A DNA stretch of 38,092 bases from Clostridia bacterium (lineage in GTDB: Bacteria > Bacillota_A > Clostridia > Christensenellales > Aristaeellaceae), in NCBI GenBank assembly GCA_017481065.1, contig JAFUPT010000125.1:1-38092 (forward strand). The letters run 5' to 3'. The notes beneath the pieces were generated by a model, which ran no database searches, was not told the origin of the DNA, and saw only the letters and a program-made list of their open reading frames with translations. The translations under genes were made by a program, and so were the position numbers. Shown piece by piece: positions 1 through 2,009 of the stretch; the stretch's first letter is position 1, and each line of letters starts with the position of its first letter.

Positions 1-31
1 TATGGAGCTGATGACCGGATTTGAACCGGTG
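1..31 (-). repeat. tRNA-Thr 3'-end fragment, copy 3 (cut by window edge)
   Basis: The first 31 bases are identical to the 3' end (CCA, acceptor strand and T arm) of the intact tRNA-Thr at 1934-2009, read on the minus strand. The match stops at base 31, inside the region before the T stem. No 5' half lies upstream; peptide gene 1 occupies that place. The window begins inside this repeat, which fits an assembly break at a repeated sequence. Confidence 0.85.
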
Positions 32-42
32 CATTCTGCGCT

Positions 43-273
43 TTAAAAATCATCACAATAGTCAGCTCCGCAGTCTTCGCATCGCATCCTGTAGTATCCG
101 CCTAAATTTACAAGTACCTTATGCCTTGCGGTTTGGCGACAATAATTGCACGTTTTCATAATTATCTGACCCGCGCTGAGAAAGCCGCCGGCAACCTGAT
201 CCAGGGCATCGTCACTGATTATTTCATGGGAAGCGTTCTGTGCGTCCTGGTGGAATTTGTCGTTCTGGTTCAT
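43..273 (-). CDS. Small peptide with double-glycine-type leader and CxxC...CxxC core (peptide 1)
   Basis: A 76-residue peptide. The start is the ATG at 273, preceded by AAGGAG with 9 nt spacing; an upstream in-frame ATG at 372 lies before the promoters and has no ribosome site. Residues 1-30 form an acidic leader ending in DDALDQVAGG, which resembles the double-glycine leaders cleaved by peptidase-containing ABC exporters. The 46-residue remainder carries CNYC and CEDC separated by 19 residues, a zinc-ribbon or disulfide-like layout, plus one more Cys. It is clearly homologous to the reading frame at 502-720. Its stop lies 11 nt from a tRNA-Thr 3' fragment. I do not recognise a named family. 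It could be a bacteriocin-like or signalling peptide, or a substrate of a modification system, but no exporter or modifying enzyme is in the window. Confidence 0.72.
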   Translation of the reverse strand: MNQNDKFHQDAQNASHEIISDDALDQVAGGFLSAGQIIMKTCNYCRQTARHKVLVNLGGYYRMRCEDCGADYCDDF

Positions 274-342
274 GGTTTTTTTCTCCTTGACTGTTTTCTG
301 TTTATATATACGATGGAAACGGGGGAAAGGGCCAGTTTTTTC

Positions 343-446
343 CATTATAACAAAAAATAGTTTTCGAGGCAACGAAAAAGAACCAACTTTTTTTCATTAT
401 AACAAAAATAGCTTTCAAGGCAATAAAAATAAAAAAGAACCAACCC
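343..446 (-). repeat. Tandem 52-bp repeat carrying duplicated promoters for peptide 1
   Basis: Two imperfect 52-bp direct repeats (343-394 and 395-446). On the minus strand each contains TTGCCT, a 16-17 nt spacer and TATAAT: -35 at 418-423 with -10 at 396-401, and -35 at 367-372 with -10 at 344-349. Both face peptide gene 1. The left arm of the upstream terminator (GAACCAAC) is also copied in the second unit. Confidence 0.7.
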
Positions 447-460
447 ATGCGGATTGGTTC
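426..460 (-). terminator. Intrinsic terminator after tRNA-Thr fragment 2
   Basis: Inverted repeat GAACCAA / TTGGTTC (437-443 and 454-460), followed on the minus strand by a U-rich tract (426-436). It sits immediately after the CCA end of the tRNA fragment, in the same position as the terminator of the intact tRNA-Thr. Confidence 0.7.
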
Positions 461-504
461 TTATGGAGCTGATGACCGGATTTGAACCGGTGACCTCATC
501 CTTA
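461..504 (-). repeat. tRNA-Thr 3'-half fragment, copy 2
   Basis: Bases 461-504 are identical to 1931-1974: the 3' half of tRNA-Thr from the anticodon loop through the variable region, T arm, acceptor strand and CCA (464-504), plus three flanking bases. There is no 5' half; the adjacent sequence is the end of peptide frame 2, whose TAA stop (502-504) lies inside the fragment. It is best read as an attachment-site-like duplication, not a functional tRNA. Confidence 0.88.
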
Positions 505-720
505 GCAACGAGGCGATATATTGACAAAGTTTTTGCTGCATCGGGTACAAAAGCGCAAGCCATTTCTCCAAACGAAGGAATCATCCTTTCCGCAGTAAGT
601 GCAAATGATGATTCCGGGCGCATTGGCGCTGGCGCCGCCGGCCACATTCTCCAGAGCCGCATCGTTGATTTCCTGGGAAGAATTCTGTGCATCCCAGTGG
701 AATTTATCGTTCTGGTTCGT
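502..720 (-). pseudogene. Paralogue of peptide 1 with ACG in place of the start ATG (peptide 2)
   Basis: The frame encodes about 72 residues. It aligns with peptide 1 from its first codon: both share N-Q-N-D-K-F-H and D-A-Q-N, and the leader ends in ALENVAGG. A short core follows with CTYC and CTRC separated by 14 residues. The codon matching the ATG of peptide 1 is ACG (718-720), with GAGGAAAG 4-5 nt upstream. The in-frame sequence back to a TGA stop has no ATG, GTG or TTG. The stop TAA is supplied by the tRNA-Thr fragment. It lies 57 nt after the Sel1 gene and could share its transcript. Either the start has been lost, or ACG is used inefficiently; the intact frame suggests any loss is recent. 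Confidence 0.6.
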
Positions 721-777
721 GGGCTTTCCTCTTTGTTTGTTTTCTGATTCTATATACGAAGCAAGCGTAATTGTGTC

Positions 778-1755
778 TCAATCGGTTCCCTGAATTTCTG
801 CCAGAAGTTTTGCGGCGTCTTCATCGCCCTGCTCAGCTGCCAGGGAGAACCATTTGGCGGCCTCTTCAAGATTCGGTTCCACAGCCTTGCCGTCATAATA
901 ATAGCAGCCCATGGCATACTGGCCGTAATCGCAGCCCTGTTCTGCGGAGAGAGAGAACCATTTCAAGGCTTCTTCGTAATTCTGTTCCACGCCTTCGCCC
1001 TTGTAATAGCTCCAGCCCACATCGTATTGGCCGTAATCATATCCCAGCTCGGCGGAACGCAGGAACCATTTGAAGGATTCCTCCAGGTCTTGTTCTACGC
1101 CTTCGCCGCATAAATACATTATACCGATGCGGTCCATGGACGGGGCATGATCCTGTTCGGCGGCAAGATGGAACCATTTGAGGGCTTCTTCGTAATTCTG
1201 TTCCACGCCTTTGCCCTTGTAATAGCTCAAGCCCACATCGTATTGGCCGTAATCATATCCCAGCTCGGCGGAACGCAGGAACCATTTGAAGGATTCCTCC
1301 AGGTCTTCTTCTACGCCTTCGCCGTATAAATACATTATACCGATTTGGTCAATGGACGGGGCATCATCCTGTTCGGCGGCAAGATGGAACCATTTGAGGG
1401 CTTCTTCATAGCTCTGCTCCACCCCGTCACCACTGTACAGGTTGCGTGCAAGGTTGTACTGGGCGCTGGCAAGGCCCTGTTCGGCGGCGGTGGTGAAAAG
1501 CTCCACGGCCTTTACCTGGTCCTGTTCCACGCCGCGACCGTTATCATAGCATATGCCCAGGCGATTGATGGATTTCAGGTGACCCTGTTCCGAGGCCAGC
1601 AGGAAGTATTCTATGGATTTTTCATACTCTCCGTTGCCATAGTAAGTGTCTCCGATGCTGAACAGTTCTTCGGGGTCGGTAATTCCGCTGATTTCGGCAA
1701 AGGAAGCGCTGCACAGCAATATCAGTGAAAAAAAGACAATGAACAGTTTTTTCAT
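778..1755 (-). CDS. Secreted Sel1-repeat (TPR-like) protein
   Basis: A 325-residue protein with an N-terminal signal peptide (about residues 1-20, ending A-S-F-A) followed by about seven Sel1-like repeats. The repeats have the form A-E-Q-G...A-x-x-x-L-G-x-x-Y-x-x-G-x-G-V-E-Q-(N/D)-x-E-E-A-x-K-W-F. Sel1 repeats are alpha-helical solenoids used for protein-protein binding; no catalytic domain is visible. The start ATG has GGGAGGAT upstream, and a TATAAT lies at 1793-1798 on the minus strand. Two 72-residue units in the middle are nearly identical at the DNA level, a recent internal duplication. It sits between tRNA-Thr and its duplicated 3' end, so it is probably cargo of an acquired cassette. 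Partner and role are unknown. Confidence 0.9.
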   Translation of the reverse strand: MKKLFIVFFSLILLCSASFAEISGITDPEELFSIGDTYYGNGEYEKSIEYFLLASEQGHLKSINRLGICYDNGRGVEQDQVKAVELFTTAAEQGLASAQYNLARNLYSGDGVEQSYEEALKWFHLAAEQDDAPSIDQIGIMYLYGEGVEEDLEESFKWFLRSAELGYDYGQYDVGLSYYKGKGVEQNYEEALKWFHLAAEQDHAPSMDRIGIMYLCGEGVEQDLEESFKWFLRSAELGYDYGQYDVGWSYYKGEGVEQNYEEALKWFSLSAEQGCDYGQYAMGCYYYDGKAVEPNLEEAAKWFSLAAEQGDEDAAKLLAEIQGTD

Positions 1756-1792
1756 CAGACAGATCCTCCCTCAAGTTATATGGCTTGTATTC

Positions 1793-1798
1793 ATTATA
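1793..1798 (-). promoter_or_regulatory. -10 element for the Sel1-repeat gene
   Basis: TATAAT on the minus strand, 38 nt upstream of the ATG. No good -35 is seen at the usual distance; the upstream sequence is U/A-rich. Confidence 0.5.
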
Positions 1799-1827
1799 GC
1801 ATTTTTAGGATAAAAAGAAAAGAGAAA

Positions 1828-1856
1828 ATAAAAAAAGCCAACCATTTCTGGTTGGC
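1828..1856 (-). terminator. Intrinsic terminator between tRNA-Thr and Sel1 gene
   Basis: Perfect 8-bp stem GCCAACCA / TGGTTGGC (1837-1856) followed on the minus strand by seven or more U residues. It resembles the terminator after tRNA fragment 2, which uses the same AACCAA core. Confidence 0.7.
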
Positions 1857-1894
1857 AAGACGGTAATTCCGGAGGATTTGCCGTTTTTTCTGAA

Positions 1895-1928
1895 AGAAAA
1901 AATGCTGGAATCAAGCCTGATTCCAGCA
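1895..1928 (-). terminator. Intrinsic terminator of tRNA-Thr
   Basis: Perfect 10-bp inverted repeat TGCTGGAATC / GATTCCAGCA (1903-1928) followed on the minus strand by a U-run (1895-1902), starting 5 nt after the CCA end of tRNA-Thr. Confidence 0.85.
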
Positions 1929-1933
1929 CCTTA

Positions 1934-2009
1934 TGGAGCTGATGACCGGATTTGAACCGGTGACCTCATCCTTACCAAGGATGCGCTCTACCGACTGAGC
2001 TACATCAGC
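1934..2009 (-). tRNA. tRNA-Thr (anticodon GGT)
   Basis: A complete 76-nt cloverleaf on the minus strand with an encoded CCA. The acceptor stem is GCTGATG / CATCAGC with discriminator T. The anticodon stem CATCC / GGATG encloses TTGGTAA, so the anticodon is GGT, reading ACC and ACU threonine codons. The T loop is GGTTCAAATCC. Its promoter and terminator are both evident. Its 3' half is duplicated twice downstream (copies at 461-504 and 1-31). Confidence 0.97.

What the first reader, a model, noticed from the sequence alone, without database searches (positions are those of the whole stretch)
1..2009. Tandem cassettes delimited by repeated tRNA-Thr 3' ends
An intact tRNA-Thr(GGT) at 1934-2009 is followed, in its direction of transcription, by two further copies of its 3' part (461-504, 44 bases identical including flank; and 1-31, 31 bases up to the window edge). 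Between them lie one unit with a Sel1 protein and peptide frame 2, and a unit of about 430 bases with only peptide 1. Integration at tRNA 3' ends by tyrosine recombinases is known to leave such direct repeats, but these units are tiny and have no integrase. They look like mobile or recombining mini-cassettes, each carrying a homologous GG-leader peptide and its own terminator after the tRNA fragment. I know of no described system of this form.
Basis: partly seen in the sequence, partly recalled or inferred. Interest (0 to 1): 0.82.

Follow-up and report, generated by a model that had tools for sequence, protein, structure and literature searches.

The report
Leftover integration scars behind tRNA-Thr
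Behind one transfer-RNA gene of an uncultured gut Clostridia-type bacterium lie two small gene-bearing segments ending in copies of that gene's tail; they are best read as shrunken remains of mobile elements that inserted there one after another, an arrangement known elsewhere, here with an unusually short unit and a little-known peptide family as cargo.

Summary
The repeats are real. tRNA-Thr(GGT) (1934-2009, minus strand) is followed by two further copies of its 3' end, at 464-508 (44 of 45 bases from tRNA position 32) and 3-31 (positions 48-76). They bound units of 1,470 bp (Sel1 gene, peptide 2) and 461 bp (peptide 1); no integrase was found in them. In 308 genomes of the family, 18 orphan 3' ends of this tRNA were found in 16; positions 32-35 match in 18 of 18, position 31 in 4. 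In relatives, tyrosine integrases of at least two groups lie behind the intact tRNA or behind orphans, pointing at it, and tandem arrays occur (G004: 83.8 + 21.7 kb). G002, of the nearest relative's genus, has the same upstream gene and no orphan found. G300 has a 3.1-kb unit without integrase and with a truncated ParA-like gene; G298 a 111-bp unit. So this is an integration hotspot with tandem accretion and decay, as described for CIMEs and microCIMEs. Present mobility is unlikely: both orphan cores are changed at the crossover and peptide 2 has ACG for its start codon. Unexplained: both units end in paralogous GG-leader zinc-ribbon peptides, a pairing seen in none of 72 other (partly overlapping) loci.

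The parts
1934..2009 (-). Intact tRNA-Thr(GGT): regenerated target gene; its part from position 32 on (window 1934-1978) is the proximal att copy
   Evidence: ARAGORN; Rfam
1899..1932 (-). Terminator-like hairpin directly after the intact tRNA
   Evidence: fold z -5.15 together with the tRNA; window 1858-1933 lies in a 108-bp alignment at 80% identity (27 bases of it tRNA) with the flank of an orphan 3' end in G284
1837..1856 (-). Second terminator-like hairpin
778..1755 (-). Sel1-repeat protein, 325 aa, N-terminus looks like a signal peptide (by eye): cargo of unit 2
   Evidence: Pfam PF08238 E 4.3e-74
502..720 (-). Peptide 2: GG-type leader and CxxC...CxxC core, ACG instead of ATG; its TGC TAA end lies inside the att copy
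464..508 (-). Orphan att copy 2 = tRNA positions 32-76, 44 of 45 bases (mismatch at position 35)
435..462 (-). Terminator-like hairpin after orphan copy 2
   Evidence: fold z -3.70 over 430-550, att copy included
344..423 (-). Two tandem promoter-like sites before peptide 1 (423-396 and 372-344)
   Evidence: 4 found in 1-2200, 3.1 expected from shuffles; direct repeat D11
43..273 (-). Peptide 1 (P0001), 76 aa, GG-type leader and zinc-ribbon-like core: the only cargo assigned to unit 1
   Evidence: three other proteins at 68-76% identity
3..31 (-). Orphan att copy 1 = tRNA positions 48-76 only (T-arm and 3' acceptor strand), at the window edge

Best explanation
The locus is a tRNA-Thr(GGT) integration hotspot carrying two decayed units without integrase in tandem. 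Shown: copies of the tRNA 3' end at each unit boundary; the same orphan 3' ends in relatives with a common border at tRNA position 32 in the anticodon loop; tyrosine integrases behind the intact tRNA or behind orphans in relatives, pointing at it; tandem arrays and integrase-less units at the same site elsewhere; a near relative in which no orphan was found. Inferred: elements with integrases like those of the relatives inserted one after another into the anticodon loop. Each insertion regenerated the tRNA with the incoming element's copy of the 3' end and terminator and pushed the older 3' end, with its terminator, downstream. Deletion then removed integrase and transfer genes and left 1,470 and 461 bp of cargo between att remnants (CIME-like units). 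The copy farther from the tRNA is the older one and has diverged more. The Sel1 protein and peptides are passengers. Peptide 1 may still be made and exported by a C39-peptidase ABC transporter elsewhere in the genome; peptide 2 is probably silent.
For: Orphan 3' ends: 18 exact-pattern sites in 16 of 308 family genomes. The pattern fixed positions 37-76 (with some two-way choices) and 'not G' at 22, yet positions 32-35 match in 18 of 18, position 36 in 17 of 18, and position 31 in only 4 of 18. Integrases lie 3' of and facing the tRNA or an orphan in G004, G009, G012 and G013, and behind 6 of the 18 orphans (Pfam PF00589 for three integrases at this site and one at the far end of G109's unit). 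In the five genomes where I saw tRNA and orphan on one contig (G004, G013, G109, G163, G300), the orphan lies downstream in the same orientation. Tandem array in G004:C1, 83.8 and 21.7 kb, with different integrase groups behind the tRNA and behind the first orphan. G163: tRNA and orphan 12.0 kb apart, followed by the same 40 bases and each by a fragment of one integrase group. Units without integrase: G300, 3.1 kb, with a ParA-like frame covering only positions 2-94 of 177 of AAA_31; G298, 111 bp. G002 has the same QueT-like gene before the tRNA and no orphan found. The window's orphan nearer the tRNA has 1 mismatch in 45; the farther one keeps an unbroken match only over 29 of 45.
Against: No integrase remnant was recognised in the window's units (tblastn), so the parent elements are unknown. 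No held genome carries these two units: the window's own genome is not held; the profile A3, which includes peptide 1, found nothing close to it in 308 family genomes (best outside G015 E 2e-8), and A2 found none in genome contigs or viral contigs and only a weak match in 3 genomes of the nearest genus. Two adjacent units that both end in related peptides abutting the att copy are more order than random decay predicts; none of the 72 other loci scanned shows such a peptide beside its att site. In copy 1 the 29 distal bases are perfect while positions 34-47 are almost unrelated; plain mutational decay would not make so sharp a border, so a second crossover sublocation (T-arm) or a deletion junction is needed there. 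The relatives are unnamed draft genomes; contig breaks and missing parts can hide orphans, so 'empty' in G002 is not proven.
Confidence: 0.85

Rival explanations
1. Active mini-cassettes: short non-autonomous elements, each with tRNA 3' end, terminator and GG-peptide cargo, still moved in trans by an integrase elsewhere in the genome.
For: Two adjacent units with homologous peptides abutting the att copy; peptide 1 looks intact, has relatives in other assemblies and promoter-like sites; related genomes encode integrases beside this site.
Against: Copy 2 has a mismatch at position 35 in the anticodon loop, where the relatives' 18 orphans agree, and copy 1 lacks positions 34-47; peptide 2 has no ATG; no other scanned locus has such a peptide beside an att copy; no circle or copy-number evidence.
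Confidence: 0.07
2. In-place tandem duplication: one integrated remnant ending in peptide plus att was doubled by ordinary recombination and then diverged, so that only one integration event took place. This overlaps with the best explanation, since the doubled piece would still be a decayed remnant.
For: Units 1 and 2 align from the peptide leader to the att copy with similar spacing. The 111-bp unit of G298 also looks like a doubled att plus a similar terminator.
Against: The sequences after the intact tRNA and after copy 2 differ apart from TAAG, as expected of separate elements; the peptide cores are unlike beyond the Cys pattern.
Confidence: 0.1
3. The tRNA 3' fragments are kept for an RNA function, for example as processed 3' ends of the peptide messages.
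For: The T-arm and 3' strand are perfect in both orphans; peptide 2's stop codon lies in the copy.
Against: Folds of the fragment regions alone are not clearly better than shuffles (z -0.44 and -1.45; the part with the terminator reaches -3.70); in relatives the same fragments follow varied sequence.
Confidence: 0.03

Closest known systems
CIMEs and microCIMEs (cis-mobilizable elements) in tandem accretion with ICEs/IMEs, e.g. Streptococcus salivarius (PMC7563491, passages; PMC5704250, passages)
   Same: Integrase-less, att-flanked units in tandem behind a target gene end; classical CIMEs of 1.2-13 kb with cargo and microCIMEs of 130-220 bp without genes. The window's 1,470-bp unit is in the first range and G298's 111-bp unit just below the second. 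PMC7563491 also quotes 215 CIMEs at a tRNA-Lys 3' end in S. agalactiae, so a tRNA target is not new.
   Different: Target is tRNA-Thr(GGT); host is an uncultured Clostridia-type lineage; the 461-bp unit lies between the two size classes and still carries a gene; no intact helper element is seen in the window; origin from an ICE or IME is not shown.
ssrA genomic islands of Dehalococcoides (PMC3146451, passages)
   Same: Tandem islands downstream of one RNA gene, delimited by copies of its 3' end; 15 of them lack an integration module and are suggested to be possible CIMEs.
   Different: There a serine recombinase and a 20-bp repeat of ssrA; here tyrosine recombinases in relatives and a core of about 45 bp.
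tRNA islands as mapped by Islander, anticodon-loop sublocation 'A' (PMC4383910, abstract and passages)
   Same: Regenerated tRNA plus displaced 3' fragment, same orientation, crossover in the anticodon loop.
   Different: Islander rejects candidates shorter than 2 kb or without integrase, so it would miss the window's units.

Membership tests
CIME (cis-mobilizable element) | Flanked by attachment-site copies, one regenerating the target gene | tested here: met
CIME (cis-mobilizable element) | Lacks integration and transfer genes | tested here: met
   (tblastn with integrase seeds, none in the window at E 1e-5); within the units Sel1 and the two peptides are the only coding frames I assigned; transfer genes were not searched for by a family of their own
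CIME (cis-mobilizable element) | Derived from an ICE or IME by deletion | tested here: inconclusive
   No mobile-element gene remnant recognised in the window's units; an analogous unit in G300 keeps a truncated ParA-like gene
CIME (cis-mobilizable element) | att sites still functional | tested here: inconclusive
   Core altered at position 35 in copy 2 and over 34-47 in copy 1; no functional test possible
CIME (cis-mobilizable element) | Moves in cis with an accreted ICE or IME | not testable with these tools
   -
Islander-type tRNA island | Displaced 3' fragment downstream of the intact tRNA, same orientation | tested here: met
Islander-type tRNA island | Integrase gene inside and length of at least 2 kb | tested here: not met
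   Units of 1,470 and 461 bp, no integrase found; criteria
Integron gene cassettes | attC site at each cassette end and an integron integrase | tested here: inconclusive
   The repeated piece is the tRNA-Thr 3' half, which speaks against it; no dedicated attC or integron-integrase search was made
Tycheposons | Tycheposon-type genes at tRNA islands | not tested
   Considered from recall; only a search listing was seen

The most novel reading that the evidence does not exclude
The units are members of a still mobile class of minimal elements, about 0.5-1.5 kb, each consisting of a tRNA 3' end, a terminator and a GG-leader zinc-ribbon peptide that abuts the att core, moved in trans by integrases at the same tRNA and serving to shuffle exported peptides.
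Probability: 0.06. Interest if true: 0.7.

Novelty: new member of a known kind. Interest (0 to 1): 0.3.

Why it matters
It shows a tRNA-Thr(GGT) hotspot used by at least two integrase groups in a poorly known gut lineage, and a case of accreted remnants too small for Islander-type island finding. Such small leftovers can keep single passenger genes, here an apparently exported peptide, after the mobile element itself has gone.

Tried and rejected
Whole-genome search of the window's own assembly: none held. Scans for peptide-1 relatives in genome contigs and viral contigs found none. The 80 loci around the arginyl-tRNA synthetase relatives (up to 10 kb each side) showed no copy of the tRNA-Thr 3' part, so that stretch of gene order is not shared. 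A pattern for orphans with only the T-arm half found 0 of 308; it demanded 'not G' at position 39 and so missed the known short copy in G298, hence this zero is not a true absence. The pattern excludes orphans with G at position 22 and those with changes in positions 37-76 beyond its two-way choices (the window's copy 1 and the orphans of G012 and G013 would be missed), so 18 is a lower bound. One search (200 genomes) listed only 150 matches, so orphans could not be counted there. A first regular expression for GG peptides missed the window's own peptides and was replaced (73 loci, the window included; at least 7 of the 72 others overlap another), which found the window's two plus two in G300 about 9 kb from its orphan. 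Of 30 loci with peptide-profile matches, none holds the tRNA-Thr 3' end (about 1.5 kb each side at most). An RNA-level role was tested by folding and not supported.

Integrase next to tRNA: of 48 flanks, 10 had a related frame behind an intact or 5'-cut tRNA; 8 of the 48 came from earlier hits and 3 were chosen for their orphans; of the other 37, 5 had one. Some flanks were cut short by contig ends. Seven seeds were used, but one of them (L119) was by my mistake the antisense frame of an integrase; each place I count also has a hit with another seed. A third group (seed L122) was seen only on the near side of an orphan in G012.

Full report
What is there. The window's minus strand reads: a QueT-like transporter gene (2140-2727; Pfam QueT), tRNA-Thr(GGT) 2009-1934, terminator-like hairpins, a Sel1-repeat gene 1755-778, peptide 2 (720-502), a second copy of the tRNA 3' end (508-464), a terminator-like hairpin, two promoter-like repeats, peptide 1 (273-43) and a third copy of the tRNA 3' end (31-3) at the window edge. 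Core to core the units are 1,470 and 461 bp (register).

Where it comes from. Arginyl-tRNA synthetase at 6422-8131 is 93% identical over its first 358 residues to a Clostridia MAG (L044). Full-length relatives at 80-86% are further uncultured Clostridia/Clostridiales MAGs, some titled sheep duodenum or goat ileum; named hits at 68-69% are Christensenella-like (record titles). No genome is held for the window itself.

The repeat is an attachment site. A pattern fixing tRNA positions 37-76 and forbidding G at position 22 found 18 orphan 3' ends in 16 of the 308 family genomes; the backwards control pattern gave 0. Lining them up shows agreement in 18 of 18 at positions 32-35 and 17 of 18 at 36, none of which the pattern demanded, against 4 of 18 at position 31. 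The crossover is therefore in the anticodon loop, one of the known tRNA sublocations ('A' in Islander's table; passages of PMC4383910). The window's copy 2 has the same border, with one mismatch at position 35.

Integrases belong to this site in relatives. PF00589 proteins were found in all 14 genomes searched (the 14 control genomes ring too, so presence alone means little). What counts is position: in G004, G009 and G013 a member of one group lies directly behind the intact tRNA and faces it (in G013 a 184-aa fragment); in G012 a second group lies behind a tRNA cut at its 5' end; in G004 the second group lies behind an orphan. Six of the 18 orphans have an integrase relative behind them (L135, L136, L137, L141, L144, L147), in G050, G009 and G163 only fragments; for the other 12 none was found within the about 1.5 kb held, with the seeds used. 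Among 37 further flanks not chosen for their orphans, 5 had one behind the intact tRNA.

Tandem arrays and small units. G004:C1 carries the tRNA at 108260 and orphan cores at 192132 and 213862, that is 83.8 and 21.7 kb. G163 carries a 12.0-kb interval whose two ends have the same 40 bases after the tRNA 3' end and fragments of the same integrase group; G109 a 9.6-kb interval with its own integrase at the far end and a VapE-like protein, phage-satellite-like. G300 has a 3.1-kb interval with a sigma-factor gene, a DUF3298 gene and a ParA-like frame that covers only positions 2-94 of 177 of AAA_31, and no integrase inside. G298 has two copies 111 bp apart, the second unbroken only from position 47 on. 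In the five genomes where I saw tRNA and orphan on one contig the orphan is downstream and in the same orientation; for the others they lie on different contigs or I did not look. So large elements, decayed elements and tiny remnants occupy one site.

Empty state. In G002, of the nearest relative's genus, the QueT-like gene and the tRNA lie as in the window; behind the tRNA comes a 348-aa frame on the other strand (not assigned to a family by any search), and no orphan was found. The window's array is thus probably an addition relative to G002. The window's native flank lies beyond its edge and could not be compared, and the genome is a draft.

How it most likely arose. Each insertion puts the incoming 3' end and its terminator behind the 5' half of the tRNA and pushes the older 3' end outward. 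This explains why the 3' ends have different terminators (different bases follow the copies in the window and in relatives) and why the farther copy is more altered. Window 1858-1933, after the intact tRNA, aligns with the flank of an orphan in G284 (108-bp alignment including 27 tRNA bases, 80% identity), so such flanks are shared among relatives. Loss of integrase and transfer genes is inferred from the relatives; it is not seen in the window. Copy 1 may instead mark a second crossover sublocation in the T-arm.

Present activity. Against it: the core is altered in both orphans; peptide 2 reads ACG for ATG. I put about 7% on active mini-cassettes.

The cargo. Peptides 1 and 2 have a leader ending in AGG and two CxxC pairs; no Pfam or NCBIfam model reaches its cut-off for them and no PHROG matches at E 1e-3. 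Matches to the profile A3, built from four peptide-1 relatives including itself and five G015 peptides, occur in 55 of 308 family genomes at E up to 1e-3, many of them weak; at most 18 candidates per genome were scored. G015:C171 alone has 18 matches, in tandem. In G277 two matched peptides (C138:9485-9915) lie just before a C39-peptidase transporter (C138:10353-10742) on the same strand; 11 of 13 genomes searched have C39 matches, and so do 8 of 14 controls. Export by such a transporter is an inference. Apart from the window, none of the 72 other loci with this tRNA or its 3' end (at least 7 overlap another) has such a peptide beside its att copy; G300 has two about 9 kb from its orphan.

Comparison with print. 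Described cases: CIMEs as decayed elements that keep att sites and have lost integration and transfer genes, in tandem with other elements (PMC5704250, passages); classical CIMEs of 1.2-13 kb and microCIMEs of 130-220 bp (PMC7563491, passages); 15 ssrA islands without integration module in Dehalococcoides (PMC3146451, passages). I did not find this tRNA-Thr locus or the peptide family in print, but made only four searches, one of them on the peptides. Verdict: an ordinary phenomenon in a little-studied lineage, with an interesting cargo peptide family.

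Noticed in passing
L130 (G015:C171), about 470-6468: Tandem array of GG-leader, double-CxxC peptides, 18 profile matches (five of them in the profile) with a conserved leader and varied cores; no Pfam or NCBIfam model reaches its cut-off for the three tested. Possibly an undescribed family of exported zinc-ribbon peptides.
   Followed up: partly
G277:C138:9485-10742 (L166, L232): GG zinc-ribbon peptide genes directly before a C39-peptidase ABC transporter on the same strand; suggests the leader is a real export signal.
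   Followed up: partly
window 344-423: Two near-identical promoter-like stretches (TTGCCT - TATAAT) in tandem before peptide 1.
   Followed up: no
L181 (G109:C74), about 5861-15486: 9.6-kb unit at the same tRNA-Thr with integrase at its far end, a repressor-like frame (by eye) and a VapE-like protein: phage-satellite-like.
   Followed up: partly
L227 (G298:C115), 16903-17058: Two tRNA-Thr 3' ends only 111 bp apart, each followed by a similar terminator: near microCIME size.
   Followed up: partly
window edge, base 1: The peptide-1 protein cluster lists 2 contigs, the longest of 39,267 bases, longer than the window; it may hold the missing left flank.
   Followed up: no
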